Assembly: GCA_038049695.1 (NCBI GenBank)
Contig: CP142453.1
Span: 36,679,501-36,743,500 of the forward strand
Direction of reading: 5' to 3'
From: Cinnamomum chago
Taxonomy: Eukaryota > Streptophyta > Magnoliopsida > Laurales > Lauraceae
DNA: 64,000 nucleotides
Below the pieces are notes generated by a model that had not been told where the DNA came from, searched no databases, and saw only the letters and a list, made by a program, of their open reading frames with translations. Below are positions 3,561-51,869 of the stretch, one piece after another. Both the position numbers and the translations under genes were made by a program. How positions within the stretch are numbered: the first letter of the stretch is position 1; the number at the start of each line of letters is the position of its first letter.

Positions 3561-6539
3561 CTTTTCTCATCTTTCAAAATTTCCCTCTCATGGATTAATA
3601 ACTAATATGAGAAGTTCCTGCAGACATGTGGGCAGTTGGTGCTATACTTGCTGAGCTTTTTACCCTGTGCCCTCTTTTTCCTGGTGAAAGGTAATATTCA
3701 TCAACCCCCGATGGAAGTAAATAGCAGATTGGAAATCATTTTCTTATCTCCTTTCTCACTGATCTTTTATAATCATGCACATAGAATCATTGGATTTGCA
3801 TCAGCAAATATTTTATTGAATGCTTTTGCATAAACTATATTAGAAGAATGCTTTGATTAGCAAATCTGTTATCAGATTGGCACAACGATGCCTCATTGGT
3901 AACCACAGCGCTTTAGTTTGTGGGTTTATTTTAATTTGTGAAAGGATTTCATCCAAGATGCCTACTTTGCAGGAATTCTGCAATAAGTAAAAGTTATGCA
4001 GATTTGCTTTAAGTCATGTGTGGATTATAGAAAGCATTTTGTTAAGAAAATATGCTCTCCTTTTTTCTTGATTGGTAACAGTGTATATCACTTGGAAGGA
4101 GAAACTACAAAGGAAACAATATGGCCAATCCAACTGACCAGAGACTTTCCTCAAATGCAAATTCTGGCCTGGCATTTTGGTTTCAGACCGATTTGAGGCC
4201 GAATGTGAAAACTTAATTTGGATCTGGGTCAAGTTTAGGTTTGGGTTGAAGTTGGGTAGGGATTGGGTATATTATAAAACTGCAATATAAGCTAGTTGTG
4301 CTGTCAACGGGCAGGGCATACCTAAGCACGAGTCTGAGTCTGGACCTGATAAGGATCGAAGGGACCGAGTCCAAGTCTGGGTTTGTTAAGGACCCTAGAC
4401 TCCTAGACCCCAGGTCCAAGGCGGCCTGATAGGATATATTTTTTTCTGAATGGTAGCCTGATAGGAAATATTGGAGGCCTGACTCTGTTACAAGTTTGTT
4501 AAGTCAAAGAGCTCTCTACAACTCAAATAATTACTTAAAAAGAAGCATATGATATACATTTCTATAAATGGAGATGGTATATATGTACATATATATACCT
4601 AGATGTATATATTTAACATTCTACAATTTAAAATATATTCTAGTCCAATTGGCCCAGTTTCCAAGGCCCCTTTATGGCCAATTAGGAATACGAACCCTAA
4701 ATTGGATCCAGGCTGGTCTATTGATCCTGTTGGACAGACTGAATCCTCAATTATTGAACTCAGACTGGGTGCATTCAGGCCGGACCTGAGTGCACTGACG
4801 ACACTATAAAGTATGGGAGAGGGTTCAATTCAGGCATGCCCTTCCAGAATTTAGGTTGGGTTCTGATTGGCCCAAAACCTGACCTATTCAATCCAAGCTG
4901 CACTCCTGTTGTGTAGTTTCTTTTTCCCTCGATAATTACATTATTGGTGCACAATTTGTTGTTCATCACAGGTTGGCTAAAAGACTTATGGAACCAGCAT
5001 AAAATTGGAGTAGTTCCGATGCGAAACCAGAATGTAATTGGAGTAGAATCACATTTGTCTGTCCTGCTTTGATTTTTCTTTGAACTGTTAATCTTGGTGA
5101 TCAATGAAGCAAATGTCTTGACATCACTAAACTGTTGTTGTCCTGAGGAAAAAAGGCAAACAATTAACTGGTATTGTTAATCATTGTTGAAGGATGCAGT
5201 TAATTTGTTGCTGATCAGTACCTATAAGAAAATAATAAAAGAAAGTAATGAAGCAAGAAAATTGGGATTGCTTATTCAGAATTTTGTTATAATCCACCTC
5301 GATGCTCTCACCTCATTTTGTTAGATTCAGTAGAAAAATTAAAAGAGACCGAGAGGTCTCTGCTCGTTTTTAAGAGGTTGAATTAGTGACTCTTTCATGA
5401 TGGGTGATTCTTTTTGGTTTGCTTGTAACCTGGGATGTGGGCTGGATTATTGATTATTGTTTTCTCATGGGGTATGCCCCATTTGGATTCTCTAGTCTCC
5501 TTCTCGATTGTGAGGATTTGAATGGATGAAGTTCCCTTCTCTTGTAAATTATGTTTGATTACAAAATGAAAGATCTTTACAAAAAAGAAGAAGAAAAGAA
5601 AGTAAAGAATTATTGCTGATCAGCATCAGCACGTTTCCATTCTTTTAAGTTTGCTTCTTAATGATTCATCTAATGAACACTTAAGAGTACTTCAACCTAT
5701 TGATTTATAAAGGTCTATAGGCGCACATAATTAAATACTGTTGTGAGGGTTTTATCTTTCACTGAAAATATGGTTCTTTTTTCTCCTTGTGCAGTGAAAC
5801 AGACCAATTATACAAAATTTGTTATGTTCTAGGAAGCCCTGATTCCACTACATGGCCTGAAGGGATGAACCTTTCACGTTCGCTTAATTTTAGTTTCTCA
5901 CATGTAAGTTTTCTGTCACAGCAGGTTGCTGCTTCTTAGGTTCCATTTTACTTAAGTTCTCTTTTGTTCCTTTAGATCATGCCAGCCAACCTTTCTGATA
6001 TTATTACGAATGCTAGCTTGGAAGCAATTGACCTAATCATGGTATGTGTTTGTTTATAACATTGATTTACATTTTAAATGCATATTGTTTTTTTCTTATT
6101 TTTTGAAATGTTAAATCTAATAATTTTCATATTTAGTTAGACACATGTACTAGGCTGAACTCTGAAGCCTGAAGCTTCTAAGTAGCTTATTTGTAATTGA
6201 TCCAAATATTTAAGCCTTGATCCTTCCAGCATTCTTTATGCTATAAGACCTGGAGCCTATTTGTATCCAGTCTCATTCATGTTAAACATGAAGGTCTTCA
6301 GGCTGACATAATTTGCTTAATTCTCTGGCCAGAAATTCATGCTTAGTCTCATTTAACATACCTAAGGTTCGAATGGTCTTGGCTGGTCCATTCCTTCTAC
6401 CACCCTTATTCAAATTACAGTGAATTGTTTAGGCTGTGATCTAATTTGTATATGACATTCTTTCAGCGACTCTGCTCCTGGGACCCACTGAAGAGACCAA
6501 CTGCGGAGCAAGCGCTGCAACATCCCTTCTTCCATGTAA

Positions 6540-6622
<83 letters not shown>

Positions 6623-9600
6623 ACATGTCTGACATGTCTTCACAACAGGTAGGATCGTGGATTCCTTATCCACTTCAAGACCCTTTCCAGATGAGGCCAA
6701 ATAACGGTGGTGAGTTACTGATCTAATTGATGCTATGATATGTTATTTCTTTTTTCTTTTTATTTTTGATGTGCTCATAAATTCATAATCCTTGGCAGTT
6801 TCAGGTCACTTCCTGAACTTTGCGCGCACAAAGCCAAAGCTTGAACTGAATCTATGGGATTTTGACACTGAAACTGATGATTGCTTCCTTGGCTTAACAC
6901 TGGCAGTTAAGCCTAGTGCCTCTAACTTAGGTAATGATGCAATGTCCCAAGTATATATGATCTCATTGGACTTGGCTTGTACCAAATGTGGGATTTTGTG
7001 TAAACCTCGCTTCAGGATCAATCTAGACATTTGCATAATAGTCTGTTCTAACAATGAGGTGGCAGGTTTGATCCCCCGCTTATGTTTACCCATACAGCTA
7101 TGTACGAAACCATGCACTAGCCCAAAAGCTTAATCGTTGCTCTTGTGTTTACATGGTATCAGAGCGGGTTTCGATCTCATCGTTCTTGTGTTGCCCATGT
7201 GGCTCTTGTCATTCTTGTCTAGCCCTGTTGGCAGGCCCATCCATGAAATCTGTTGGGCCTTCACATGAGGGGGAGTGATGGGAAGTCCTACATCCCACAT
7301 CGCCCAAGTCCTAAGTTGGACAGGGCATCATATACCTGTTTGGGCCTTCCACCTATAAGCTTAAGCTTTTGGGTTGGTACATGGTATCTTACAAGCTACA
7401 GTGAAGGAATTTGATAATTCTTAGCCCAAAGACATATAATAGCATTCTCAGCTATGATGCCTAGATACGGAATGGATACGGCAGGACACACCATGCTAAT
7501 GACAAGGACACAGATTTTACACATAAAAAGTGAAGTATTGGATACAATGCGACATTATACGTTGCGCTTATGATCGGGGTACATGGTTTGGTGATCCAGT
7601 CTATCCAGTCTTTTGACCTGCACTGGCCATGGATCAATCATGCCCCAGCGTTGTAAATATTGATGATGGCCTGCTGACTAATGGCTAGCAAATAGATGGC
7701 TTAGAAATACACCAACAGCCGCCTACATTCAGTCCAAAGGAGGCTTAGTAATTGGTGTCTAGGATATTCCAGTTGAGGTTACTTCCAGGTGCATTCTGAT
7801 CATTGTGATAGATCATGAACCATCCACACTTTAAATCCTGCTACTATTATGCATCTAATAAAAAACCTCTTTAAATAGTGTGTCCACATAAAGTCAATAT
7901 TTTATAAATGGAGACCACCTCAAAACAGCTTCACCATGAAAGGTTGTAATGTGTTTTCTTTATGCAGAGGATGTTCCTAGGGCCCCTCAATGTGCCAATG
8001 AGGTAAAAGCTGCTTGTGAGCTTTCATGTGCTTATGATCGTGTAATGCATAGATGTATTGAGAGGCTACTGTTACAAAAATGGTAATTACCTTACATTCT
8101 TTTTGCTAACTTAAAAAATGCAGGATATATTGTTCTACTCAGGATTTGAGGACCATCCAAGGCAATCAGGTAACTTCTATCCCATCCTTCTTATAATTTT
8201 CAAACAGTTAATTAAAGATAGTTTGAACTCCTATGTATTCTATGCAAATGATGCAGTTCAAAAGTGGCTGCCTGTGGCAGAACGAGCTTTGTACAATGGG
8301 TCATATCCCAGGACTCATGGGCCATGCTCATGTCAAGTGTGCCCAATCCTGGGCCCACAACTAGTCTAACAGGGTCAACCCAACTATGTGCAGAAAGTCA
8401 ATGGGTCCAATAAGGCAATAAATGATATGTTCTTGGATATTATCTCTATTAGAACAATTATCTTTTTAAGTATTTCCCTTCAATATAGTTTTTCTATATT
8501 ACTAGTGTCTAGATTCAATACATTTTTTTATTTTAATGAATAAGGAAAATATCTTCTTTGGGAATCTCAAGGGTCTATTTGAAGACCCTTGGAACAATTG
8601 TGTAGGCGTGCCTACTTTTGGGTAGATGCTTCCAGCAATCTGGCTGCATTGGCAAACAACTAAGCCCCTTAATGTGTTGAAATCCAAATTGAGGGTAGTT
8701 TGTGTTGAGTTGATTTTAGTTGAAATGCCAAAATTCAAACTGAAATGCCATGACGTCCGGATACAACATACAACTGGCACACCATGGATTTGGCTGGGTC
8801 ATGAGTTCTAATATACAACTGAAGTATAAGAAATGGCACTTATTTGATACATTGTCTATTTTCAACTATCCTGGTCCTAAAATATATGTAATTATTTCAT
8901 TTCAAATAGTGAGCAACATGAAAAGCTTTAGCCATTTTGGTTGAAATGAATTGGAATGACGACCATGACCAGTAAAGGAAAATACTTGTAAAGCTAGCAT
9001 GGCTTACAGTCCAAAATCCTACCAACATGAGGGCATCATCATCATCATCATCAAAGCCTTGTCCCAATTATGTTGGGGTTGGCTGCATGAATTTTATTTC
9101 TCCATTCCGATCTATCATGAGCCAAATCGTTAGATAAGTTGGACATTTTCAAATCTATTTTTACTACCTCTATTCACGTCCTCTTCGGCCTACTACCCGT
9201 TGGTGGGCCATCATTATATATAGCCAAGCTTTTCCTTACCGACGCCATTTATGGCCTGCATTGGACATGACCAAACCATTTCAAACAGGTTTATCTAATT
9301 TTATCACTTATTGATGCTATCCATAAATGCTCTTGAAAGCGCTCATTTCTAATTCTATCATTCCTAGTTTTACCACACATGCACCACAACATTTTCATCT
9401 CTGCTACATCCATTTTATGCATATGTTGCTTTTTGATTGGCCAACATTCTGCTCCATTGGTCATAGCTGGTCTAATCGCTAGTTGCAGCTCGAGATCCTC
9501 TTAGATTTAGGGCTTTATCAAGGAGTGTCAAGGAAATCTCGAGGACAAAGAGAGTGGAAAAGAAGAACGAAGAAGAAATTGACAAAACCCCAGAACATTC

Positions 9601-18183: not shown

Positions 18184-18383
18184 TGTCGCATCTCAAAATT
18201 GGATATCCTTAATGACTTCAATTTCGTGACGCAACTAGCGTAGGTATCCAAGTCCTTTCAACTTCAATAAAAAAACTTATCCTCACACTATACCTACAGG
18301 ATATAACGGGGTAAGTTTAACCTTTATATTTTCAAACTTTTCCTACGAAAGCATTTTAAACAATAACAAAACTATATATATAT

Positions 18384-19649
18384 GGGGATTTAACGGGAAA
18401 AACCCTCTAAAACAGGCTATTAATGAATTTGGCCCCAATAGAAAAGGTCAGACATAATAGGCCCTAAATTGATGTTTCTCTTTTCTTTTTTGTCTTTTAG
18501 CGCTATAGTCGATATCGACGCTCTCGCCTGAACATTCATTCGTCTCTTCCTCTCTCTCTTATTCTCTCTTGCTCTCTGCAACTGATCTCAAATCATAATC
18601 TTTGAGAAGGGGGAAGAAGGAAAGAGAAAGCTGGTAGGTGTCTGCAGATGAGATGCATGGAGATGGAGGTGTGCGCAGGGGCTGTGAGGGCGGAGTGCAG
18701 CAGTGAAGGAGGGGGAAACGAGAAAAGAAGAGGAGGAAAGAAAGAGAAAAAAAAAGGAAAGAGAGGGAGAAGGAAGGAAGAAAGAAAGGACGTGTGCATT
18801 GGCGTGGAGTGCAGTGGGTGGCAAAGGGTAGTGCAGGGAGAAAGGAGAAAGGAAGAAAGAAAGAAAGAAATGAAAAAGGAGGAGAGCCATCTCAGTGGGG
18901 TATGCAGGTGGGTGTGCGGTGGCCCATCACGGCTCATCTCCTTCATCTCATCTTCACCATCCCAGGACGCAGACGGCAGACCTCTGCCTCCTTCTCCTTT
19001 GTCCTCTCCGGCCAGCCAACCCACCACTCCTTCATCCTTTCCATCTCCCTCCCATCAACCTCCATCTCACCCTATCCGTAGCCCTCACGCATCTCCCTTA
19101 TCTCCACGCAGCCCATCATCAGCTCTTCTTCATCTCCATCTCCACGAGGAATGGAATGCAAGTTCGGAGTCCTTAAACCGATCATTTAATTGTATCCATA
19201 TCAAGCTGGAGGTGTTTTCAAATAAAGCCCATGAAGGTGTTCGATGAAATGACGAAGAGAAAGGAGAAGGAAATTTCACGCTCATTTCTTTTATTTTTCT
19301 CATGGGAAAGAAGTCTGCTGCTGTTGTGGGGTTTGTCCTTCCTTGATTTTGCTCACTAGGAGATATTGGATGAAAGGAATTAGAGAACATGAGTGGGGTT
19401 TTCATTTCTTGATTTTTGTAATTTTCAAACATATTTCATGTATATATATTTTGAAATGTAAGGTCAATACATAATGAACTTGTAATGTTGTGAATGGTTT
19501 CCCCCTATTTGAGATGTTTGAAATGTGTTTGAGATGTCTGAAACTCTTGAGCTTTTGAAATGTCTGAGTGAAGGACTGAAACCTTCCCCACCAAAACTTT
19601 CAACTATGACGTTCAAGGATGAAATTGGTATTGGCTAAATCAGTGGAAG
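18384..19649. repeat. Left terminal inverted repeat of the 4.35-kb Mutator-like element
   Basis: Pairs with 21456-22731. It contains one half-copy of the palindrome found in the internal array (TAGTCGATATCGAC at 18506-18519), a strongly GA-rich tract (18600-18890) and open frames up to 199 codons. Those frames are low in complexity and occur in three overlapping phases, so they are not taken as genes. Confidence 0.85.
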
Positions 19650-20365
19650 TTGCGAAATGAGTCGGATGAAACCTTCCCCACCAAAACTCTATACTAATTT
19701 TTCCTCATTACTTTCATGTAGTACCCATCTTCATTAATATCTGTAGCATTGTGTTTTATTAACAAACATCTCTTTCATGTAGAGATGATGAACTAGCCAG
19801 TATTTGTACCATGGTATCTAGCAACGATTTAAATAAAGTACTGGACGAATCCATTTTTATGGACTATCCTGTTTAAAGAAGACATTCATCATCAAGACAA
19901 TTGTAATCACTACGAAGTTTTCACTGTGGCATTCGCAGAGCATTGTGTTCACTGTCGTCCTATCACATTTACACAGTCTGACATCCCTTACTTCCGTAGC
20001 AGAATTGTCATTGAGTTATTTAAAAGAAGTTGACAAGTGAATGCTAGTTTGATGTAATTCTCTTAACTGGTTAGAAGAAGTTTTGTGAAGGTTTTTTGGG
20101 CAGTAGAAGGAGAGGCCAAACATAGATACTTACTTTCTTTACTTCGTAATTAAAATTGTGGAACTTGTGGGCAGTGGTTGTGGAACTTCTATAGTTTTGG
20201 GCAGTTGGATTTATATTGTGAAACTTCATGTATAATTATTTGAAATTGAATGGTATGTTAATGTATGGTTGTTAATTGAATGTGTGAATGGAATGCACCA
20301 ATGTATTCAGAACAATGTTTAGGACAATGGAATGTATCATTCTCTGGTTTGTTTAATACGACCAA

Positions 20366-20645
20366 TAGTCGATATCGACTATTTAGCTGAAGCCTAAAAA
20401 ACACAGTTATAGTCGATATCGACTATTTAGCTGAAACATAAAAAACACAGTCATAGTCGATATCGACTATTGTCATAGTCGATATCGACTATTTAGCTGA
20501 AACATAAAAAACACAGTCATAGTCGATATCGACTACTGTCATTGTCGATATCGACTATTTAACTGAAACATAAAAAACACAGTCATAGTCGATATCGACT
20601 ATTTAGCTGAAACATAAAAAACACAGTCATAGTCGATATCGACTA
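20366..20645. repeat. Array of eight 16-bp palindromes TAGTCGATATCGACTA
   Basis: The palindrome (16 bp, often 18 with flanking A/T) recurs eight times, mostly every 44-46 bp with a conserved linker (TTAGCTGAAACATAAAAAAC, then ACAGTCA), and twice at a shorter spacing of about 23 bp. One copy has a T change (ATTGTCGATATCGACTA). The same core lies once in each terminal repeat, at 18506-18519 and 22597-22610. A shared site in ends and interior suggests a protein-binding site, inferred only. Confidence 0.9.
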
Positions 20646-20829
20646 TGTTATAATACTATAACTTACTAAGTGTAGCTCTAGATGGGGTTTGCTAATCATT
20701 TTCAATAATAAAAGTGGAAAAAAATAAGAAGTCATTAGCGGGACAATACAAACAACCATTATATTATCATAGATAAGTTCTCAACAACATATAACCCCAA
20801 AAAAGGGTGATCTTTATAAAAGGAAAAAG

Positions 20830-21460
20830 TATGTTTAACACTTGTGCCCTTCCAAAAAATGCTTCAACAAAATGTGCAAGCCCATCACGACTACATCTTC
20901 TATCAATTACATTAACATCAAATATTAACACCAATAAAAATGGACATGATGACATTAACATGGGCATCCCGCATCCAAAAAATCTCTTCCATGTAGAGAT
21001 TACATTGTCCAGAAGGCTACATCTTCTATCACATTAACACCAAATACTAACAGCAACCAAAGAGGAGTTCACATTAACTCTTTCATCTCACTTCCAAAAA
21101 ATGCTTCAGTAGACTGTACACTATCCAGAATGGTTGCATCTTCTATCACATTAACACCAAATATTAACACCAACCAAAAAGGAGTTCACATTGACTCTTG
21201 CATCCCCCTTCCAAAAAATGCTTCAGTAGATTGTACACTGTCTAGAACGGCTGCATCTTCTATCACATTAACATCAAATATGAACACCAACCAAAAAGGA
21301 ATTCATATTGACTCTTGCATCCCCCTTCTAAAAAATGCTTCAGTAGACTGTACACTGTACAGAACGGCTGCATCTTCTATCACATAAGCACCAACTACTA
21401 ACACCAACAAAAAAAGAGTTCACATTGACTCTTGCATCACCCTTCCAAAAAATGCTTCCA
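20830..21460. repeat. 117-bp tandem repeat, about five to six units
   Basis: CTTCCAAAAAATGCTTCA recurs at about 20848, 21091, 21209, 21325 and 21442, with a weaker unit near 20975, giving a period of 116-118 bp. Because 117 is divisible by three, the frame 21130-21387 stays open and reads as 39-residue repeats. No known domain; most likely a satellite-like array inside the element. Confidence 0.85.
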
Positions 21461-22731
21461 CCGATTCAACCAATACCAATTTCATCCTTGAACGTCATAG
21501 TAGAGAGTTTTGGTGGGGAGGTTTCGACCCTTCACTCAGACATTTCAAAAGCTCAAGAGTTCGGACATTTCAAATACCTTTCAAACTCCTCAAACACATT
21601 TCAAACATCTCAAATAGGGGGAAACCATTCACAACATTACAAGTTCATTGTGTATTGACCTTACATTTCAAAATATATATACATGAACTATGTTTGAAAA
21701 TTACAAAAATCAAGAAATGAAAACCCCACTTATGTTCTCTAATTCATTTCATCCAATATCTTCTAGTGAGCAAAATCAAGGAAGGACAAACCCCACAACA
21801 GCAGCAGACTTCTTTCCCATGAGAAAAATAAGAGAAATGAGCGTGAAATTTCCTTCTCCTTTCTCTTCGTCATTTCATCGAACACCTTCATGGGCTTTAT
21901 TTGAAAACACCTCCAGCTTGATATGGATACAATTAAATGATCGGTTTAAGGACTCCGAACTTGCATTCCATTCCTCGTGGAGATGGAGATGAAGAAGAGC
22001 TGATGATGGGCTGCGTGGAGATAAGGGAGATGCGTGAGGGCTACGGATAGGGTGAGATGGAGGTTGATGGGAGGGAGATGGAAAGGATGAAGGAGTGGTG
22101 GGTTGGCTGGCCGGAGAAGACAAAGGAGAAGGAGGGAGAGGTCTACCGTCTGCGTCCTGGGATGGTGAAGATGAGATGAAGGAGATGAGCCGTGATGGGC
22201 CACCGCACACCCACCTGCATACCCCACTGAGATGGCTCTCCTCCTTTTTCATTTCTTTCTTTCTTTCTTCCTTCCCCCTCTCCCCCTCTTCTTCTCCATT
22301 CTCCCTGCACTACCCTTTGCCACCCACTGCACTCCACGTCCTTCCTTCTCCCTCTCTTTCCTTTTTTTTCTCTTTCTTTCCTCCTCTTCTTTTCTCGTTT
22401 CCCCCTCCTTCACTGCTGCACTCCGCCCTCACAGCCCCTGCGCACACCTCCATCTCCATGCATCTCATCTGCAGACACCTACCAGCTTTCTCTTTCCTTC
22501 TTCCCCCTTCTCAAAGATTATGATTTGAGATCAGTTGCAGAGAGCAAGAGAGAATAAGAGAGAGAGGAAGAGACGAATGAATGTTCAGGCGAGAGCGTCG
22601 ATATCGACTATACGCTAAAAGACAAAAAAGAAAAGAGAAACATCAATTTAGGGCCTATTCTGTCTGGCCTTTTCTATTGGGGCCAAATTCATTAATAGCC
22701 TGTTTTAGAGGGTTTTTCCGGTTAAATCCCC
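21456..22731. repeat. Right terminal inverted repeat of the 4.35-kb Mutator-like element
   Basis: Inverse of 18384-19649. It lacks a short segment of the GA-rich tract present on the left and has a few extra bases elsewhere; otherwise almost identical. Carries GTCGATATCGACTA at 22597-22610. Confidence 0.85.
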
Positions 22732-22740
22732 TATATATAT

Positions 22741-23535: not shown

Positions 23536-24339
23536 TATATATATGGGACCTGAGGAGAGCCTCAACTGGACAAGCTTGTTTTGCTCGTGTGGGGTTAAAA
23601 CGATTAAAAGGAAGGGGGAGTCTCAGGTTTTCATATTTTCCGCCAAAAAAATTAAAGTTCCCCCTTTCAGACCCCCAAACAAATCCAGCGACGAAGTTGC
23701 CTCGCTCTCTCTCTCTCTGATCTCTCTCCCTTTCAGACCCCTAAACGCAAAGCTTCGCTACGATCTCTCCCCCCCCCCCCCCCCCCCACAATCGCACCGA
23801 CCTCTCTCCCTTTCAGACCCCCAAACGCAAAGCTCTCTTGCTCTCTCTCTCTCTCTAGTGCGAGTATTGCGATCTCTCTCTCCCATCTCGCCCCGTCTTC
23901 TCCATCTCTCCCTATCGCTGATGCGTTGCGTCTCTCCCTCTCTTGCTACTGCTCTCCTGATCGCGTCGAGCGTCTCCCTCTTGCTGCGTCGCTGCTCTCT
24001 CCCCCTCTTGTCGCTGCAACCCTGCCTCACGACCGGTATCATCTTCGATCTCCAACACAGAAAACATAGTAAGAAATGGGTTTTGGTGTTGATATGTATG
24101 TGTTATTCGTTGTTTATTTCTTCCTTTCTTTTTCTAATGCTGAAATTTGTTTGGGGGTTTTGTTTTTTGTTGTTTGGCGTCTTCTATCTGCAAGAATGGT
24201 GAAATCCTCTTGCATTTTTTTTTTTTTTTGTTAATCCTCTTTTTATTTAGGTTTCAAGTAGATAAATAATAATACAGGGAAAATGAGTTCAAGGAACCAA
24301 GTTCAGATGATCTAACCAGGGCATAGTGAATCCCACCAT

Positions 24340-24750
24340 ATGTGGGCTTCGCACTGGCATTCATCTGCCTTTACTAAATTTGGTTCAAAATATGTAATTG
24401 AGTCTTATTTTGATCCTAAAGTCGGCAAGACTTGCAAATTCGATGTAGACTATTGTACATTTTATTTGAAGGACCCTCTTTCTTGTTCTAGTTTGGCCTG
24501 CTTAAGGGTTCCAATAATGTCCTTTGGGGCTCATGGTTGGTTACCCATTCTCTTCATCTGGTTGGATTTAGGTTTATGTTGCCTTTTCAATTATACTTTC
24601 AAGTATTTGTATTGGAGTCTATATTGGTTGGGCAAAAAACTGATGTATTGGCAAAGAAAATTTCATGAATCAGTCTCATTAACAAGATTCTATTATCAGC
24701 TGGAAAAAATTGGTAATAGTTTGCATCAAATTAGTCTCATTAATCATTAG
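24340..24750 (+). other. Unassigned open frame (136 codons) inside the Mutator-like element
   Basis: Open frame between the left terminal repeat and the transposase. The protein is rich in aromatic residues, with a hydrophobic middle (about residues 62-95), and matches no family I recognise. A short repeat (AGTCTCATTAA at about 24672 and 24733) lies at its end. It may be leader or non-coding DNA of the element; coding status is unproven. Confidence 0.25.
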
Positions 24751-25196
24751 CGTGATTCTATTCTGTTTCAGCCATGACACTCCCTGGCTTGTAGCTGTGT
24801 AGTAATGTCTTTACTATGAAAATGTATGAACTTGTATCTCCCTCTTTCACTGAATATGTAACTAAAGATATCAATAACATGCTAATAGATACAACCACAA
24901 CCAGAACTTGTATAATCTCAATTGCATTGATAATAAATATCTCAATTGCATGAGCAAGAATAATTGTGATGCTCAAATGTAGCTACCTGATCTATAGAAG
25001 TATTGGCTAGTGTTTCGGATTGTTTTCTTAATATTAGTATTGACAATGAATGATGTAGATTTTTAATAATAATATAAACAGAGAAGAGTAAAGTAGACTT
25101 ACAAATTAGAATTGTATGAATTTTATTGAGTTTTGTGTGCATTTCATGTTCATATAGAGTACTCCATGTTTTAATGATTTGCGATCCAAGTTGCAT

Positions 25197-28079
25197 ATGG
25201 ATATGGCCTCCTCCTCATCATCAGTTGTACATTATCCGATTGTGGATGAAGACATGACACCAAGATTGGGCATGCATTTTGATAATTTAGACGAGGCATT
25301 TAACTTTTACAATGCTTATGGAAAACTCGCTGGATTCAATATAAGAAAAGAATCTAGTAATAGAGGTAAAGATGGGGAGGTTGTATGGAAGCGATTTGTC
25401 TGTTCAAAGGAGGGTAAAATAGATGAGAAGCACTTGATTGGTAAGGAACTTGTTCAAAGACGTCGAATGGAAACAAGATTCGATTGTAAGGCAAAGTTGC
25501 AAGTTAAAATAGATAAGTTAGGTGGTTATGTGGTATCCAAGTTTGTTCCTGAACACTCTCATGCTCCCGCTACTTTAAGTAAGAGATTTATGTTGAGGTC
25601 GCATCGTGAAGTGCCAGAATCAAAGCGACAACTTATAAACACATATGATTCAGCAAACGTGCAATGCAAACAACAAATGTAAGTGTTTGCATCTCAATCT
25701 GGGGGACTATCCAATGTAAGTGTTTGCATCTCAACAAATGTAAGATTTTCTGCCTCCCTTATCTGGAACCTCCTATCCAAAGACACTGATGCAAAAAGCT
25801 ACAGATTTTTGGCTGCTACCTTCATAGATGTTCTCTACCACCTCTGGAAGGCTCGTAATGAAGCAATTTTCGCAAATCGCAGGCCATCTCTTCCCTACAT
25901 CCAATCTCAGCTAACATAGGCCATCTCACTCTCCATGCAGCAGACGTCTGTCGCTTCTCAAAGCATTCATCTGAGTGTCCTTAGAGAGTCCATGAGAATA
26001 GCCACTTGTGTTAATAGTGGTTCTCTGGTTTAGTGCTCCCTTTCTTTTTCTCTCCTTCCTGGTTTTGTTTTTTTATCGAGCTCTGGTTTTGCTCTGAAAT
26101 GAGCTCCTGGAGCTCTGCCTCTCTCTTGTTTCTTCTATTCTTTCTGGTTTCTTTTTATTTTTTCCTTGTATTTTTGTTCCTCTCTCCCCCTCTTCTCTAA
26201 TACAATTTACCCTTTAGCAAAAAATAAATAAATCTGGGGGACTAAACAAAATTGGATTTACAGATACGGATGCCAAGAATCACCACAGGGATGAAAAGGA
26301 AAAGAAAAGGGGGCTAGATGGACCATTGCTATTTCAATCTTTTGAAAACCGCAAAGAAATGGGAAATGGTTTCACATATACCATTGAGTGAGATGCAGAT
26401 AAAAAGATAAAACATGTGTTTTGGGCAAATGCAACATTTCGTTCGGCTTACAATGTTTTTGGTGATGTGGTGACATTTGATACAACCTACAAGACAAACT
26501 GTTACGAACTTATTTTTGCCGCTTTTTGTAGGTTGCAATCACCATGGGCAAACTACTTTATTTGGATGTGGGTTCTACCAAATGAAAAAACAGAGTCTTT
26601 TGAGTGGTTGTTTAACACATGGCTTGAAGCTTCAGAGTCTTTTGAGTGGTTGTTTAACACATGGCTTGAAGCTATGTCATTTGGTCCACCAAAAGGTATT
26701 ATAATAGATCAAGATCAAGATCTGGCAATGACAAAAGCCATAAAGAATGTAATGCCGAACACTGTTCACCGGTACTGCCTATGGCACATTTTGGATAAGT
26801 TGCCTACGAATTTAGGAGGGGTTAATATTCACAATGAGTGTTTAATAGATCAGATTAAAAAATGTGTTCATAACTCTGATACTACTGATTAATTTGAGAG
26901 TTTTTGGAATCCGATCATAATAGACAATAAGCTTATGGAGAATGATTGGTTGGTGGATATATTTAAGATTCGTCATATGTGGGTTTGGGCATAATTAAGG
27001 GAAACTTTTTTTGGTGGCATGTCGACCACTCAAAGAAGTGAAAGCATGAAAGCATTTGTCAAGCAGTACGTACAGTACAAGAATACCCTCCTTGATTTCG
27101 TATTGCGTTTTGATGCTGGGGTTGAACGTCTAAAGTATCTTGAAAAGAAAAAGGATTTTGAGAATAGCAATGGGAGGCCTAAAACGAAGACATGTTCACC
27201 AATGGAAAAACAAATGGCCGAAGTATACACAGGAAACTTATTTTATAAGTTTCAAGATTTATTCACCACCATGTCAGTTGCAGAAGATATTGTTTACGAG
27301 GATGATGTCACCTGTAAGTTCGTCGTGAAAAATTATTCTGATGAAAAGCAAATTGATAGAGGGGTTTTATGGAAAAAAGATGAGAAGCATGCATATTGTT
27401 CCTGCAAGAAGTTTGAATTTGAAGGCATCACTTGTTGTCACATTTTGTCTGTCTTAAAGAGATGTGCTATACTATTTCTACCCGAGCGTTACATTTTGAA
27501 GCGATCGACGAAAGGTGTTACAAAAGATGCATTTGTAGACGTTGTTGAATCGGGTGGATCTATTGGTGTAAACCCATGCTTGGCTCGACATAATCACTTG
27601 TCATGTATGTTTGCAGGGCTTATTGACATAGCTAGTCAATCTAGAGAAGGTTTCAAATTTTTAATCAGTGGTCAAAAGGAATTGGAAATGAAGTTAAGGT
27701 AGCTGACATTAAACAGCCCATCAAATACAAGCATTGATAAAGGGAATGGACTTGTGGATAGTAACTTGATTGAATATCACGAGCCATCGCATGTTGTGAC
27801 GAACGGACGCGCGAAGAGACTTAAATCGTTGAAGGAAAAGGCAACAAAAAGGCGCCTATGTAAGGGTTGCAACAAGCGCGGTGTATCACATGACAAACGT
27901 AATTGTCCGGTGTTGTTGAACAGGTAAACAATTTAATGCGAGTTTTGTTGTTATCCCCCATGTTTCATATACAAATATTACTTATAAAAAAATATTTCAG
28001 GTTAGTTGATGCTGATCCAAGCCAATCACTGGCCTCTATCGATGGAAGTAGAGAAAGTTCTGATGAAAAAATGCAATGA
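25197..28079 (+). pseudogene. FAR1/MULE transposase, decayed
   Basis: N-terminal FAR1 DNA-binding domain (25260-25600): RLGMHFDNLDEAFNFYNAY, then the zinc ligands C (RFVCSKEG), C (RFDCKAK) and H-x-H (PEHSHAP). MULE catalytic domain 26410-26890 has GDVVTFDTTYKTNCY (first Asp), IIIDQDQDLAMTKAI (second Asp) and HRYCLWHI; GMSTTQRSES (27018-27047) precedes a SWIM zinc finger CSCKKFEFEGITCCH (27391-27435). A zinc knuckle CKGCNKRGVSHDKRNC (27862-27909) and a last exon 28002-28079 follow. Start taken at ATG 25197 because the frame upstream lacks one. Damage: stop after 25679, further stops near 26388, 26890, 26991 and 27700, a local frame shift about 26515-26575, a 42-bp tandem duplication (26597-26638/26639-26680), and an L1 insertion. 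Not functional as it stands. Confidence 0.85.
25710..26230 (+). mobile_element. 5'-truncated L1-type LINE inserted in the transposase, 14-bp target duplication
   Basis: AATCTGGGGGACTA is present at 25696-25709 and 26231-26244, flanking a 521-bp insert that ends in an A-rich AAAAAATAAATAA tail. Its 5' part reads FLAATFIDVLYHLWKARNEAIF then NRRPSLPYIQSQ, the C-terminal region of plant L1 ORF2 (the 'IWKARN' segment), then stop and a T-rich 3' untranslated region. Excising it restores transposase sequence on both sides (…SQSGGL / NKIGF…), so the insertion came after the Mutator-like element. Confidence 0.88.
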
Positions 28080-28457
28080 CTTACATTGGTAATTTATTTC
28101 ATACTTTAAGAATTTTTATCATGATGAAACTTGAAGCTTAATTTTCAGAAGCCTTTTCTATCCATAACTGACCTCATGTTGCATGTCTATTTTAGCTCAA
28201 TGACTGTAATGCAAAGAAGGTGCCATCTTTTGCAATGTTTAACACATCAAGACAGCCATCATGGGTACTGTCATTGAGCTCCTTTTGTTATTGTAGGTTT
28301 GATGAAGAATCACATTGAAGAAATGCAATAACTTGCAAAGAAGAATTGGTTTGATTCAGCTAGTGTAGAGATTGTAGAATGTCACATATGTTTCGAATGT
28401 TTCAATTTTGAGTATGTGTTCTTGTAGTACTTTGATGAATGCATGGAAGTTGTATAG

Positions 28458-29081
28458 TCATGTTTTATGTTGTTGACAAAGCACTTGGATGGAATGGATG
28501 GAATTGGGTTTGAGTATCATGTGACAGTTTGAGTATGTCATCTTGTAGTTCTTTGATGAGGTTTGCAAGGAATGTTGTCTAGTAATGTTGCAGTAATTTT
28601 GTTGTAGGGAATGTAATGCATAGAGGGGATTTTGTTGCATCATCAATATATAGCTACAATAATTTGGGTGTTGCTGCTGAAAATTCTGAGTTTCAACACT
28701 TTCTCTCAAAAATTTGATTTCATGCTTCATCTCTTCAAGTAACGTTATCATTTCATCTTCTCTACTTTCGATTTGCACACGTCCCATACTTCGGACCGGT
28801 GAATATTCATTTGCATCCTCATCCATCCAAATCAACAACCCACAACCTCATTCTCCCTACACACAAATTCATAGCAAAAGAAATATTAATTTTTGAGTGA
28901 AAATACATATTAATTTAAGAAGTTGGAATCTATAAACACTTATGTGTAAATCTAGACATTTCCAAAATCTTCGTCCCGGATTTTGGGCCGTACGAGATGT
29001 CTTTAAAATCATATAACCATACTCACATGGGCACTTTGGAGTCCATTCTAAGTTTCGTACCGAAGATGATGCTGACGACAT
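28458..29081 (-). CDS. GRF zinc-finger protein carried by the Mutator-like element
   Basis: Two exons on the minus strand: 29081-28940 and 28846-28458, joined across an 93-nt intron by GT (28939-28938) and AG, with matching phase. The start ATG at 29081 opens MSSASSSVRNLEW, followed by TPKCPCEYGYMILKTSRTA, NPGRRFWKC, then across the junction CGLLIWMDED. This is the GRF zinc finger pattern (C-P-C, NPGRRFWKC, CG(F/L)xxWxDE). A charged segment EDEMITLLEEMKHEIKFLRESVE about residues 80-105 looks like a coiled coil. About 173 residues. Role unknown; in plants GRF proteins of this small type often ride in transposons. It faces the transposase gene, as mudrB faces mudrA in maize MuDR. No stop inside the joined frame. 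Confidence 0.7.
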
Positions 29082-30414
29082 TTGTACGGCTATTCCCATT
29101 ATGGAAAGAAAAAATAAACAAAAAGTCTTTATTGAAAATGTTAACATCAGATAAAAGAAAATGCCAACTGCAAACTTGAGAGGACTGAGTATTTGCTGAT
29201 ACATTGCATTTACATACATACAACATGAATACAAATCCAACCAACATTCAGAATTAAATCTCCACTTCCATTCTATGTGCAACAATATAATCATTGCACC
29301 AAATAAATGGGCTAAATTCCATTTACATTCATACAACAGGAATAGAAATGAACGACAACATCCAGAATTAAATCTCCACTTTTGTTTTGTGTGCAACATC
29401 ATAAGCACTCAATTACAACCCACCACACAAAATAGGCAGCACTCCAACATCTAATTGGACAACATTCCAACAGACTCATACAGTTTATTAGAATTACATA
29501 ACTTCAGGATTCCACTTGTAGACTTTGGGACCCCTATTAGAAATACATAGCTTGTATATTGACGCCTACATCATTATACTATTTTCAAAAACTGTATATA
29601 ATCAAGCCTGTTATATCATTCAAAAATTGTTTATCATTCAAACCAGTGATGAGCTTCAAACTATAGCATTCAAACATCAATCATAACCCACCAAACAGAT
29701 TGCCCATAAAACCTTTTTTGCTCAGAAAAAAAGGCAGCAAAGAACAAAACCCCCAAACAAATTTCAGCATTAGAGAAAGAAAGGAAGAAATAAACAACGA
29801 ATAACCCATACATATCAACACCAAAATCCATTTCTTACTCTGTTTTCTGTGTTGGAGATCGGAGATGATACCGGTTGTGAGGTAGGGCTGCAGCGACGAG
29901 CAGTGGAGAGATGCAGCGACGCAGCGAGAGGGAGACGCTCGACGCGATCAGGAGAGCAGTAGCGAGAGAGGGAGAGACGCAGCGCAGCAGCGACAGGGAG
30001 AGATGGAGAAGATGGGCCAAGATGGGAGAGAGAGAGATCGCAGTACTCGCACCAGAGAGAGATCGGAGCGATTGGGGAAGAGAGAGAGAGAGAGATCACA
30101 TGGGAGCTTTGCGTTTGGGGGTCTGAAAGGGAGAGGATCAGAGCGATTGGGAGAGAGAGAGAGAGAGAGAGAGAGAGATCGCAACGAAGCTTTGCGTTTG
30201 GGGGTCTGAAAGGGAGAGAGAGCAGCTTCGTCGCTGGATTCGTTTGAGGGTCTGAAAGGGGGAACTTTAATTTTTTTTGGCGGAAAACATGAAAATCTGA
30301 GACTCTCCCTTTTAATCGTTTTAACCCCACACGAGCACAACGAGCGTGTCCAGCTGAGGCTCTCCTCAGCTGCAGTTGAGGAGAGTCGGTCCCTATATAT
30401 ATATATATATGAAA

Positions 30415-33519: not shown

Positions 33520-34754
33520 CTAAACCCTGCTGTTTGAAATGGCCTGTAGAAACATCGCCTTCACTGATGGGTCGGTTGAAAATCGACCAATTACGGCGAT
33601 TGTTGCCGTGCTACTTGCAACCTTCTCAATCCCTCTAGAGATCATGCAGATGTGGTTGGCTTCCACCACCACCATTACACCTCCTCCAAACATGGAAGCA
33701 ACAGTCTCTGCAATTTGGCGAGTGAGCCTTTCTTGCACTTGGAGCTTGCAACCATGGAAATGTACTATCGACTCCAAAATGGATCTTTCAATGGTTTTAG
33801 CTCCTTCATGGTAAGAGAATCCAATATGTACTACTCCATAGAAGGGAAGAAGGTGATGTTCGCATTGAGACCAAAAGGGCAGATTCAGCTCGGAATGGAT
33901 CCTGTTTTGGTCCCAATGGTCATCTCCACCTGTTTTCTTACGCATCAAACTGAAATTGCACGGACTCGTTTTACCATTATTGAAACTGTTCAACATCACT
34001 TCCATATTGCACCTTTTGAAGTTCATCAGCCACTGCACAAAACGTTGGGGAGTCCCCACTAACTCTTTCCTCAATGGATCTTCACCCAATGAACAGAGAA
34101 TTGAAGTTACTGCAGCTATCATGGCAGGCTGAGGGTGCCCCAACCCTGCCTTGGAAGGAATTCTACTGCTATGCCCATTGCAGGCCACCACCTCTAGAGG
34201 CTTGGATGGGCACCAACACTGGCTAGAGTACTGTTTGAAATTTCTCTCCATTTTCACACCACTAAGCATTAGAAGTGTAGAGAAGTCACCCCAAGCATCA
34301 CTATTTTCATTTTCAAACACCCCAGAACTGGAACAGACAGAAATCTGTGCCCATCCTTGCATATCAACTTTGGAAGAAATAGTTCGGTTGAACATTGTTG
34401 GGAACTGAATGTGCCAGCATTGAAGGAAGACAGCAACACCAGCTGGCTTGATGCTACTGTGCAGTGCTCTACAGACTTCATCCGCTAGACGCTGTGGATC
34501 TTGAAGCCTCTTAGCAAATACATCTGCAACCCTGGATAGCTTGCTGAGACCTACCACACGTTGCCCAGATGGGATGTAACCCACATGGCACTGGACCTTG
34601 AAGGGAAGCAGACAAGATTCACAATATGAGAAGAGGTCAATGTCTCGAACAACCACAAGCCCTCCAGCCCCTCCTGCATGGCCTAACCCACCATCCAAAC
34701 CAGCTTCTGGAAACAGAGCCCCTTGAACAATATCTTTCACTTTTTGTTGGTAAC
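33520..34754 (-). CDS. GCH1: GTP cyclohydrolase I exon 2
   Basis: A single 1235-nt exon holds most of the N-half (from YQQKVKDIVQGALFPEAG) and the whole C-half. An acidic or irregular linker with CSSSGVFENENSDAWGD separates the halves; the second half begins about HPQPAMIAAVTSILCSLGEDPLRKEL. The phrase pair 'LGEDPNREGLRKTP' (exon 1) and 'LGEDPLRKELVGTP' (here) shows the internal duplication. Frame is open throughout; no damage. Confidence 0.95.
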
Positions 34755-37700
34755 CTGAAAAGGGCATCAAAGAAGTATTGACAGTCAATATCCACACTCA
34801 CTATATTAACTGAGAAAGAATCATTTCAATATGAGATGACGGTTTGAGCAAATCAGATATGTGTTATATCAAGAAAGCAGCATAGTATGTACATGACAGA
34901 ATCTTGTAGCTCCAAAATTAGGCATTGAGATATTTCAGAAGGTTTGCATGACCCAAATCACAAGCAGATAGAATAAGCATTGGGGGCAAACCGTATTAGA
35001 TGGGATACTGTTCTTCTGCCTTTCCTACTCTGACTCAATGACAACTCCAAAACCCTGCCGGTTTGGGAAGGACAAGTCAGAAAATTAGTGTCCGCTTAAT
35101 GCGGCTTCTGATTTCCATGCTGCTCCCAAATGCAACGGAATGGATGACCATCCATTGTGCTAACATATTCAAATTGTTTAAGATAAGCCAATTAGGGAGT
35201 ACACCTTTTGGCAATAAACTAATCCCACATGTTCATAGGTATCAGGTCTCTGCATTTATAAGCTGATATTCTCTTCTTTATTTTGAAACAGCAACAACCA
35301 ACAATATGTAAAGCTAACAGATCTTCCATTCTGGTTTTTTTTTTTTGGTCTTTTGTCTTTTTAAAGGTCAATCCATGGTAGGTCCATCAGATAATGATAT
35401 GGATCACCAAACCATGGCCCCACATGTACAAAGATTAAGGAAACTCTGCTTCTATTAAATTTATGCTGCAGAATCTAAATTGCTGTACGCAACAAAGATA
35501 TTTATGCTTTGGTGTGATCAAACCATGAGCAATGAAAAAGTAAAAATAAAAACGAGTAGAAAATATAATGAGTGCCTCAAACAAACACATTAGCCATTCC
35601 CTTCATTTTCTTTTCTGTAAGTAGCATATAAAAATTCCTTACATTTTCATTAACTATTTTTAAACAAGACACCATCAATTTTGCATATGAAATTATTGAG
35701 AAATAGGTATTCCTCAATGTTCCTTTCCTTTCATTGATGCAAATTCATTGAGACAAAATGAGGGTACTATCTGCTCTCTTACATAGTGCAATATGTTAGA
35801 TCTCCTAAAATATCTTGAGCTTGAACCTATAATCTGCGCATGAAAAATCAAGTCCGTGCATGGCTTGTTATCAATACTAGTGAATGCTTTAGAGAAACTC
35901 ACCACAGTACCAAAGCATTGACAACATAGAGAGTAGAGATCAAAAGGTAAATAGGCACCAACTGGTTGGAGGACTGACCAATATACAACATATCAAACTA
36001 GAATATGAAATTTGAACAATATACAATGTATCAAACTAGAACATGAAACTTGAAGTGTAAAGGGACTGTTTGTTTACAAGAACAGAAAACCTTGCATTTC
36101 CCTCAAATCATTACATTTCTTGCTTAATTCTTTTGAATGTGGAGATAAAATATTTGTTAAGATGTGAAGTGATGATCCAATCCATAGCCTTGGAGGAACT
36201 AAAGGCCCTGCACCTATGAGACCAACCCTTTTAGGTTTTTGTGCCTAGTGCAAGTTCAGCTCAGTCATACATTGCTACATCTTAGAGTTCTAATTGCCAT
36301 CCCAGTTGTCAATAGTTTCACATAGTTCAAGAGTTCTTGTCATCAAATTGACCATTTCAATGGTCCTAGCTGTTATTCTATGTCAAGAAAGAGAACCCCA
36401 ATTTCTAATAATGTTTAAATTAGGGAAGTTTCTAATCTGGTTAACTAATCTTGTAAGAGATTTTCCATCCTTAGCACAGAACTCAGAAAAATTGTCGACG
36501 TGTTTTTCATCACATCACCCTAATGGAACAATTCACAATTCAGTTACTTTTCAGAGATCTGGATGTCTCCCTATATTTTGGTCAATGATATGAAATCACC
36601 ATAACTTAGAAGTCCATGTCTTCAAATTGTTAGTTCCAAGAGCCCTAGCTTTTCTTTTATGTCATGAAAGTCAAAGGCCCAAGTTATTGTGAGTTTTAAT
36701 AGTGTTTACACTAGGAAACTCTCTAAGGTGGATGACTAATCTTTAAAGGGATTCTCCATCCCTTCACACGATAATAAAAAAAATAAAAAATTGTCTATGT
36801 ATTTGTAATCATAAGACCCTAAGGGAAAAAACTCAATTACTTCTTCAAAAAACATGAATTTTCTCCCTCTATTTTGGTGATGGTACGAAGTCATCATCCT
36901 CTCTCCTGGTTAGAAATTATGGGGGCCTACTCATGATGGAGAATACTTGAGTGTGATTCCAAGGGCTTCTCCGCATCAAATGAGATGCTTACATGGCTAA
37001 AAATCGCAGTTGCGGTTGCGGTTGCCATCGCAGTAGACCCTGAAAACTGTTATGACGCTGCACCGCGTCTCAGTTTGTGATTATTGCGGTGCAAAATTTT
37101 ATTTTACCCCAAAAAAATCAGAAAAGAATATCCAAAAAATCCAAAATATTATAAAGTGATAGAAAACAATGTCTTTATTCCATTAGTAAACACTAATAAA
37201 GCAAAATATCAACCCTCCTAAGTCATAATATCTAGTATCGTTGTTTGATCTGAAACTTGTAAAGTCTGTTTTGAATTAAATAGATTTACATATATATATA
37301 TATATATTAAAACAAGTTGAAATATCACAAATTTTATATTATGCATTGCAACCATAATTTTGAACTTACCATTAGTGTTAAACAGTCAAGAAACTAGTAC
37401 TAGTAATATAGTTCTCAATTACCAAGTAAGTTGAGAGTGAATATCAATTTTTAAGTAACATTTACAATGACACCAAGATGAATTAATTAATGAAAGTAGT
37501 AGAGCATGGACATAGGGGTATTGTGGTTGAGAGAAGACGCCTACATATGAGAATCCACCAAAATCTTGCAAATCATTTGAATTTTTGTGAAAAAAAGAGG
37601 CTTGGGAAGCTCTATCACAGTCTCAGGAAGCTCCAAAGATGGTTTTAGAAAGAAAGAAGTGAAAGAAAGAAAGGGAAAGAAAGTTAAAAATAAAAAATAA

Positions 37701-51536: not shown

Positions 51537-51869
51537 TGACAGGAGGAGAATTTATTAGAAATGACTCAGACCCAAATCAGGGAACTGAAGAAGATTAAAA
51601 AGAAACTTAAGAAAACCAACAAAGTAATCAAAGATAAACGTTCAAAGAATCAAAGAAGACTGAAAAAAACCCAAGTGCCCAATCACAGAACAAAAAAATT
51701 CTTCACCAAAAATAATAAGAAGATCAAAAGCACCCAGATGAAGTAGTAGTCCCAAGAAAAATGATAACGGTAGAGAGATACAGAGAATCAAACAAGACAA
51801 TAGAAAAGGCACAAACAAAATTTCACAAAAACGGCATCGACCCAGATCAGGAAATCGAATCAAGATTGG

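What the first reader, a model, noticed from the sequence alone, without database searches (positions are those of the whole stretch)
18384..22731. Young Mutator-like element that carries an internal array of the same palindrome found in both ends
TAGTCGATATCGACTA occurs eight times in a regular array (20366-20645) and once near the outer part of each 1.27-kb terminal repeat (18506-18519 and 22597-22610, each about 122 bp from the end). Two symmetric sites plus an internal cluster suggest a binding site for the transposase or a host factor, possibly bringing the ends and centre together. I know of no described plant element with this layout.
Basis: partly seen in the sequence, partly recalled or inferred. 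Interest (0 to 1): 0.7.

Follow-up and report, generated by a model that had tools for sequence, protein, structure and literature searches.

The report
Jumping genes with switchable palindrome tags
A family of plant jumping genes carries the same short palindrome near both ends and in a cluster in its middle, and a sister family has swapped the palindrome for another at all of these places, as expected if the element makes a protein that reads it to recognise its own kind.

Summary
In detail: ten palindromes in the window, 0.13 expected. In the 1.06-Gb genome the element is a short derivative of about 12-kb Mutator-like elements. These encode a MURA-type transposase and, facing it, exons with a plant mobile domain (PMD) and a C48/Ulp1 protease domain; the array lies between the two genes. 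Of 130 exact termini found without using the palindrome, 115 carry it at about the same depth. Putatively autonomous copies identical over 4,000 bp beside the array have 9, 10 or 12 array sites. The main new result: a sister family (transposase 71-73% identical) has the same layout with another palindrome core, CCGATATCGG instead of TCGATATCGA, in both its ends and its array. Ends and array thus switched together, which argues for one element-encoded reader of both. I favour a VANC-like anti-silencing role for the PMD-C48 protein. The transposase as reader is nearly as likely; binding and function are untested. The layout resembles VANDAL/VANC target arrays, but the motif is palindromic, sits at a set depth in both ends, and accompanies a different protein domain.

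The parts
18384..22731 (.). Non-autonomous Mutator-like element (element A)
   Evidence: Inverted arms and 9-bp flanking duplication; a 96.8% identical full copy at C1:2378300-2382696; 16 pairs of facing exact termini 3.1-5.4 kb apart among the 100 places listed
18384..19649 (+). Left terminal inverted repeat
21455..22731 (-). Right terminal inverted repeat
18375..18383 (.). Left 9-bp target duplication TATATATAT (register ambiguous in a TA run)
22732..22740 (.). Right 9-bp target duplication TATATATAT
18506..18519 (+). Palindrome copy in left end, 122 bp from the end
   Evidence: 115 of 130 exact family termini have it within the searched range, mostly at base 124-125 by the listing
22597..22610 (-). 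Palindrome copy in right end, 122 bp from the end
20366..20645 (.). Array of eight palindromes spaced in multiples of 22 bp
   Evidence: matches the intergenic array of the 12-kb elements
19695..20196 (+). Relics of the PMD-C48 gene region (element positions 1312-1465 and 1459-1813 match positions 6042-6199 and 6746-7119 of the 12-kb element, 85% and 73%)
20847..21458 (.). 117-bp tandem repeats matching the DNA just 3' of the transposase frame in the 12-kb element (its positions 7969-8388, about 70-76%)

Best explanation
The palindrome is the recognition site of a dimeric, sequence-specific DNA-binding protein that the Mutator-like element itself encodes. One site lies about 124 bp inside each end and a variable cluster lies in the noncoding DNA between the two genes. 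In this view it binds its own family's ends and intergenic array, keeps them free of silencing, and so lets the transposase be expressed and reach the ends. The window's 4.3-kb element has lost both genes but kept all target sites, so it can be served in trans. SHOWN: the layout, its presence in four diverged families, array copy number varying between otherwise identical copies, and the joint difference of motif in ends and array between sister families.
For: Terminus-first test: 115 of 130 exact termini carry the palindrome (CpG-decay forms allowed) 88-118 bp inside the 22-bp terminus; reversed control 0. Sister family II: 86 of 95 exact termini carry GCCGATATCGGC in the expected range and 0 carry GTCGATATCGAC. 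The two family II elements read carry 16 and 15 CCGATATCGG and no TCGATATCGA in the 4.5- and 4.3-kb stretches with the array; seven family I stretches have 5-14 TCGATATCGA and no CCGATATCGG. So a symmetric double change separates the families at both ends and the array. End palindromes begin at base 124-126 in the elements measured and 87 of families I-IV (one end each for III and IV) although the ends have diverged. The array lies between the convergent transposase and PMD-C48 genes; 37 of 52 scored transposases have a PMD exon within 15 kb, all 37 convergent. Three copies identical over 4,000 bp have 9, 10 and 12 array sites, like the dynamic VANC target repeats (PMC5735166). Three non-autonomous size forms keep both end sites and the array. 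PMD in MULEs was already guessed to serve anti-silencing (PMC5418596, passages). Some VANC genes carry a Ulp1 domain, and such VANDALs are reported to be hypomethylated motif-specifically (PMC13317346, passages).
Against: No binding, methylation or expression data. PMD is called a domain of unknown function (PMC8616336, passages), and Pfam finds no DUF1985, the VANC domain, in the exons scanned. The VANC21 motif is not palindromic. A site at a set distance from each end is as natural for a transposase, and MURA and Spm TnpA are themselves said to cause hypomethylation (PMC10398659, passages). Three near-identical transposase copies with no PMD exon among the 144 scored PMD hits (of 3,058 candidates) still keep a nine-site array. 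The three non-autonomous forms share deletion junctions, so they are not independent. In family I the outer flank of the end site resembles the array spacer (up to 17 of 24, null 95% point 13; both are A-rich), so the array may once have been copied from an end. 15 family I and 9 family II termini lack the expected palindrome and were not examined.
Confidence: 0.45

Rival explanations
1. The palindrome is the transposase's own site: MURA (or its SWIM/MuDR DNA-binding part) binds subterminally as a dimer at both ends, and the internal array is a second landing place that titrates the protein, represses its gene or recruits it to the element.
For: Set position, mostly about 124-126 bp from both ends. 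Kept in non-autonomous forms, which need the transposase. Kept in three near-identical transposase copies without a PMD exon among the scored hits. The switch would equally be explained by transposase change (71-73% identity). Aedes Muta1 has subterminal tandem repeats in its ends (PMC5225508, passages).
Against: Inference: an internal array of 9-12 sites far from the ends, between the 3' ends of two genes, should not be needed for transposition. Families I and IV differ almost as much in transposase (76%) without a core switch.
Confidence: 0.32
2. A host DNA-binding factor (activator, silencer or insulator protein) reads the palindrome, and the element exploits it.
For: The core GTCGATATCGAC also occurs, with other flanks, in short repeats that are not obviously this family. 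About 1,600 hits per strand genome-wide against 2 and 0 for the reversed pattern.
Against: Sister families in one genome use different cores, each consistently in ends and array; one host factor would not impose that. The other repeats were not classified and may be further derivatives.
Confidence: 0.1
3. No reader: the sequence is a product of slippage and copying. Palindromes in an array expand by themselves, and ends and array are homogenised by gene conversion, which also explains the joint switch. The RNA or DNA fold may matter (terminator between convergent genes, hairpin siRNA).
For: Array copy number changes fast. In family I the outer end flank resembles the array spacer. Spacing is in 22-bp modules.
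Against: In family II the outer flanks of the end sites match array flanks in at most 10 of 24 positions, below the null 95% point of 13, so only the palindrome itself is shared there (one inner flank reaches 16, probably because of a second, palindrome-like stretch beside it). The position is kept while neighbouring bases diverge. Folding needs do not require the same palindrome in ends and array.
Confidence: 0.13

Closest known systems
Arabidopsis VANDAL21/VANDAL6 MULEs with VANC anti-silencing proteins (PMC5735166 parts 1-3 of 6; PMC10398659 passages)
   Same: MULEs with a transposase plus further genes; short motif in dynamic tandem arrays in noncoding DNA; related families have different motifs; terminal noncoding DNA is also a target; some VANC genes carry a Ulp1 domain (PMC13317346, passages).
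   Different: VANC motifs (YAGTATTAY; AGTTGTCC/AC) are not palindromic; the text seen describes them in introns, intergenic and terminal DNA, not as one site at a set depth in each end. Second gene here is PMD+C48, no DUF1985 found in the exons scanned. VANDALs are called non-TIR MULEs in PMC13317346; these have related ends. Binding and demethylation are shown there, not here.
PMD-carrying MULEs of grasses and Amborella (PMC5418596, passages)
   Same: A Mutator-like element carries a plant mobile domain; the authors guessed at an anti-silencing use.
   Different: There PMD-C is described as fused to the transposase; here PMD and C48 exons lie on the opposite strand, facing the transposase. 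No target motif is mentioned in the passages seen.
Maize Spm/En with TnpA (PMC2613891 and PMC10398659, passages)
   Same: Element-encoded protein reads repeated subterminal motifs; linked to both transposition and demethylation; motifs diverge between CACTA subfamilies.
   Different: CACTA superfamily; motifs clustered at the ends, no central array mentioned in the passages seen.
Aedes aegypti Muta1 (PMC5225508, passages)
   Same: MULE whose long TIR holds repeated subterminal motifs; many non-autonomous derivatives; 8-9-bp target duplications.
   Different: Nine 12-bp repeats inside the TIR plus a 10-bp imperfect palindrome at the very end; no internal array and no second gene mentioned in the passages seen.

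Membership tests
Mutator-like elements (MULE) | MULE-type transposase in the autonomous partner | tested here: met
   PF10551 E 6e-19, PF03108 E 4e-13, PF04434 E 7e-9 in an 869-aa frame
Mutator-like elements (MULE) | 8-9-bp target site duplication | tested here: met
   Perfect 9 bp in the two 12-kb family I copies, two family II copies, L079 and L080; one mismatch in L081; ambiguous TA run in the window
Mutator-like elements (MULE) | Inverted terminal repeats | tested here: met
   Window arms 1.27 kb; left and right ends of a 12-kb copy agree fully over the first 20 alignment columns, then partly to about column 140
VANDAL/VANC anti-silencing elements | Family-specific short motif in dynamic tandem arrays in noncoding DNA | tested here: met
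VANDAL/VANC anti-silencing elements | VANC-type gene (DUF1985) | tested here: not met
   Pfam hits in the facing gene's scanned exons are PMD and Peptidase_C48 only; not every exon was located. So it is not filed as a VANDAL; the claim is only that it may work like one
VANDAL/VANC anti-silencing elements | Encoded protein binds the motif and removes methylation | not testable with these tools
   No binding or methylation data
PMD-carrying MULE | PMD domain inside a MULE | tested here: met
   PF10536 E 1e-41 and 7e-10 in two frames inside the 12-kb element; 37 of 52 scored transposases have a PMD exon within 15 kb
PMD-carrying MULE | PMD fused to the transposase | tested here: not met
   PMD frames are on the opposite strand, convergent, in the 12-kb copy and in all 37 pairs

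The most novel reading that the evidence does not exclude
The plant mobile domain is a sequence-specific DNA reader, and this palindrome is its first known target. PMD-C48 MULEs tag their ends and centre with a dyad address code that sister families rewrite in concert with the protein, so that each family protects and mobilises only its own kind.
Probability: 0.3. Interest if true: 0.85.

Novelty: new variant of a known kind. Interest (0 to 1): 0.7.

Why it matters
What the plant mobile domain does, and why MULEs carry it, is open (PMC5418596, PMC8616336, passages). This genome supplies a natural test: two co-resident families with the same layout but different palindromes in ends and array, and near-identical copies with open frames. 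Binding of each PMD-C48 and each transposase to each palindrome is a two-by-two experiment. A motif that differs jointly in ends and a remote array between sister families is also unusually direct comparative evidence that both are read by one element-encoded protein.

Tried and rejected
Element B next door (23550-30369) as the autonomous partner: rejected, it has other ends, FAR1, MULE and SWIM frames and no palindrome. Common satellite: rejected. Printed name for the motif: none of the 20 listed of 31 papers holds the 16-mer; two list GTCGATATCGAC, on a bacterium and a fungus by title (titles and abstract starts only). Among the papers listed (some lists capped; titles and abstract starts) I saw none describing this layout; a paper whose title is close, Sasaki 2022 (PMC9016345), is not held, so it may describe parts of this. 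Rfam and tRNA scans of the window: nothing. Family I termini with the family II palindrome: not completed. A C48 search and a genome count of GGCCGATATCGGYC also did not complete. No structure prediction or fold search was run.
Full report
OBSERVATION. The palindrome TAGTCGATATCGACTA (up to 3 mismatches) occurs ten times in the 64-kb window, against 0.13 expected from shuffles. Eight copies form an array at 20366-20645 with spacings 44,44,22,44,22,44,44 (seven exact, one with one mismatch). One 14-bp copy lies 122 bp inside each end of an element at 18384-22731 whose 1.27-kb arms are 93% identical with gaps. The flanking 9 bp are TATATATAT on both sides.

GENOME CONTEXT. The window lies at C3:36679501-36743500 of a 1.061-Gb assembly in 14 contigs. 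TAGTCGATATCGAC occurs there 1,603 times on one strand and 1,590 on the other, against 2 and 0 for the reversed pattern. A perfect 16-mer is counted on both strands, so there are fewer sites than hits. A 96.8% identical copy of the whole element lies at C1:2378300-2382696. Among the 100 places listed (of 130) for the exact terminus GGGGATTTAACGGGAAAAACCC there are 16 facing pairs 3.1-5.4 kb apart. In 15 of these 16 both ends carry the palindrome (read off the listing; the exception is C4:3815452).

AUTONOMOUS PARTNER. Two elements of 12,054 and 12,091 bp, at C1:12396538-12408591 (target duplication TATTTTTTA) and C1:28366129-28378219 (TTAATGAAA), have palindromes starting at base 124 and 125 from their ends and arrays of 9 and 10 exact sites at about 7.35-7.75 kb. 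On the minus strand they encode an 869-aa transposase frame with MuDR DNA-binding, MULE and SWIM domains. On the plus strand, facing it, the 12.4-Mb copy has frames with a plant mobile domain (PF10536) and a C48/Ulp1 peptidase domain (PF02902). I take these to be one gene, as their order and strand suggest; splicing was not modelled. The array lies between the 3' ends of the two genes. The window element is a deletion derivative: pieces of it match the C48 gene region (85% and 73%), the array, the DNA just 3' of the transposase (about 70-76%) and the outer 140 bp (84%) of the 12-kb copy. The rest of its long arms, between about 140 and 1312 bp, has no match there. In the search with the transposase, 52 of 4,850 candidates were scored; 19 are full length at 98% identity or more, 18 of them without a stop. 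Two transposase pairs and one terminus pair on C3 recur at a constant offset of about 261.4 kb, so some copies are duplicates of a larger segment or of the assembly.

TEST WITHOUT ASCERTAINMENT BIAS. The ends aligned had been found through the palindrome, so their agreement proves little. I therefore searched for the terminus alone: 65+65 = 130 places. Of these, 57+58 = 115 carry GTYRATATYRAC (palindrome or its CpG-decay forms) 88-118 bp further in; the reversed control has 0. In the listed rows the palindrome mostly starts at base 124-125, with outliers such as 112 (C1:74440080) and 138 (C4:35038663). The remaining 15 termini were not examined.

ARRAY DYNAMICS. Eight transposase loci all carry the right-end palindrome and arrays of 11, 9, 10, 12, 12, 11, 11 and 10 exact sites. 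L054 and L055 are identical to L053 over the 4,000 bp beside the array, yet these three have 10, 12 and 9 sites. In eight family I arrays (sites with up to 3 mismatches), 92 of 94 spacings lie within 2 bp of a multiple of 22. About two helical turns would put sites on one face of the DNA; simple duplication of 22-bp modules explains the same fact.

OTHER FAMILIES. I name the families I-IV for this report. All five more distant transposase loci whose downstream DNA I fetched have an array there. C11:8.78M, C6:23.3M and C5:21.8M (87-90% identity over most of the transposase; N-terminal part of the C11 and C6 copies 72-74%) have mostly TA-flanked cores. Family III (C8:3.76M, 72%) has a degenerate array: 12 sites with one or two mismatches, none exact, TCGATATCGA kept in two; its flanks are TT/AA-like, and three loci with similar TT-flanked sites hold 2-5 exact TCGATATCGA each, assigned to it by sequence resemblance only. 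Family IV (C3:3.89M, 75% over most, 47% over the N-terminal part) has five sites, four exact, with mixed TT/TG flanks. Across ten arrays the 12 core positions hold 1.30-1.93 bits and positions four or more away hold 0.86 or less. The sites were chosen by similarity to the core, so this contrast is inflated. Family III and IV ends have other sequences but carry a palindrome starting at base 126 (one end each).

THE JOINT SWITCH. Family II is a sister family with at least 95 exact termini (PMD exon 73% identical at the two loci read, transposase 70.6-73.4%, C48 61%). In C1:9778700-9790169 (target duplication TTTATTTAA) and C9:35203786-35215231 (TATTTAAAA) the intergenic region holds 16 and 15 copies of CCGATATCGG and no TCGATATCGA, in units of about 95 bp containing pairs 22 bp apart. 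All four of their ends carry GGCCGATATCGGC, its GCC at base 124-125. Genome-wide, of 50+45 = 95 exact family II termini, 46+40 = 86 carry GCCGATATCGGC in the expected range and 0 carry GTCGATATCGAC. The converse count for family I termini did not complete, but 115 of those 130 carry the family I form. A symmetric double substitution therefore separates the two families in the left end, the right end and the array. Families I and IV, and family III in its end and part of its array, have the TCGATATCGA core; family III, whose C48 is closest to family II (74%), is among them. The simplest reading is one switch on the family II branch; no rooted tree was made.

WHAT THE SWITCH MEANS. One protein reading all sites, encoded by the element and changing with it, predicts this pattern. 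A host factor does not, because both families live in one genome. Copying by gene conversion could in principle spread a change between array and ends. In family II, however, the outer flanks of the end sites show no similarity to array flanks (at most 10 of 24; null 95% point 13), so only the palindrome is shared. One inner flank scores 16, probably through a second palindrome-like stretch beside it. In family I the outer flanks do resemble the array spacer (14-17 of 24; both are A-rich), so the array may have begun as a copy of an end.

WHICH PROTEIN. 37 of 52 scored transposases have a PMD exon within 15 kb, all convergent (given 67 of the 144 PMD hits, which are 144 of 3,058 candidates). 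At least two of the other 15 have PMD or C48 remains nearby (L066, L062). The association therefore does not separate PMD-C48 from the transposase. For PMD-C48: the array lies between genes far from the ends; the architecture parallels VANC targets, which lie in intergenic, intronic and terminal noncoding DNA, form dynamic tandem repeats and differ between related families (PMC5735166); some VANC genes carry Ulp1 (PMC13317346, passages); an anti-silencing use of PMD by MULEs was already suggested (PMC5418596, passages); and part of the genes that need the PMD proteins MAIN and MAIL1 share a promoter motif (PMC7156037, passages). For the transposase: the subterminal position, and that MURA and TnpA are themselves linked to hypomethylation (PMC10398659, passages). 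Three near-identical transposase copies without a PMD exon among the scored hits keep a nine-site array, which is neutral or slightly against PMD-C48. I give the PMD-C48 anti-silencing model 0.45, the transposase 0.32, a host factor 0.10, and no reader 0.13.

NON-AUTONOMOUS FORMS. Elements of 3.1, 5.4 and 4.5 kb (L079-L081) keep both end sites and arrays of 7, 6 and 9 sites with up to two mismatches, although they differ in arm length (about 1.07, 1.96 and 1.35 kb) and deletions. They share internal junctions with the window element, so they are one lineage with later rearrangements. Retention of the array fits a role in cis but does not prove one.

VERDICT. A real, functional-looking and family-specific recognition system in a lineage of PMD-C48 Mutator-like elements. 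It is a new variant of a known kind (self-encoded reader plus motif arrays). Its palindromic site at a set depth in both ends, its concerted switch and its link to PMD are the new points.

Noticed in passing
window 23550-30369: A second, unrelated Mutator-like element: inverted arms about 620 bp (23550-24172 / 29735-30369), FAR1, MULE and SWIM reading frames at 25158-27702 (+) and a weak GRF zinc-ribbon match, below Pfam's cut-off, at 28869-29408 (-); also beside TA runs.
   Followed up: partly
window 33520-34797 (-) and 51159-51551 (-): GTP cyclohydrolase I gene (425-aa frame, E 1e-61) and a partial second match (E 1.5e-7) about 17 kb away.
   Followed up: no
G000 C3, about 28.37-28.83 Mb: Two transposase pairs and one terminus pair recur at offsets of 261,435-261,439 bp: a large segmental duplication or an assembly duplicate.
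   Followed up: no
L041, L042, L044, L047, L048, L049: Short repeats with TG-flanked or TA-flanked palindromes, often about 74 bp apart, near T-rich or A-rich stretches, not obviously family I-IV elements; may be further derivatives or another user of the same site.
   Followed up: partly
L034:515-1129 and relatives L060, L062, L070, L071: The C48 domain reads FYNS in all five that cover this place, where I recall an Asp in the Ulp1 catalytic triad; His and Cys are kept in these five (Cys is lost in L037). The protease may be altered or inactive.
   Followed up: no
G000, paired hits: In 13 of the 21 transposase-PMD pairs under 98% identity the PMD exon has diverged more than the transposase (for example 82-85% against 94-95%); in 7 it has diverged less, in 1 equally. 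VANC is reported to vary more than VANA.
   Followed up: partly
L033:6162-6440: The frame between the PMD and C48 frames holds tandem peptide repeats of about 17 residues, recalling the repeated variable regions reported in VANC proteins.
   Followed up: no
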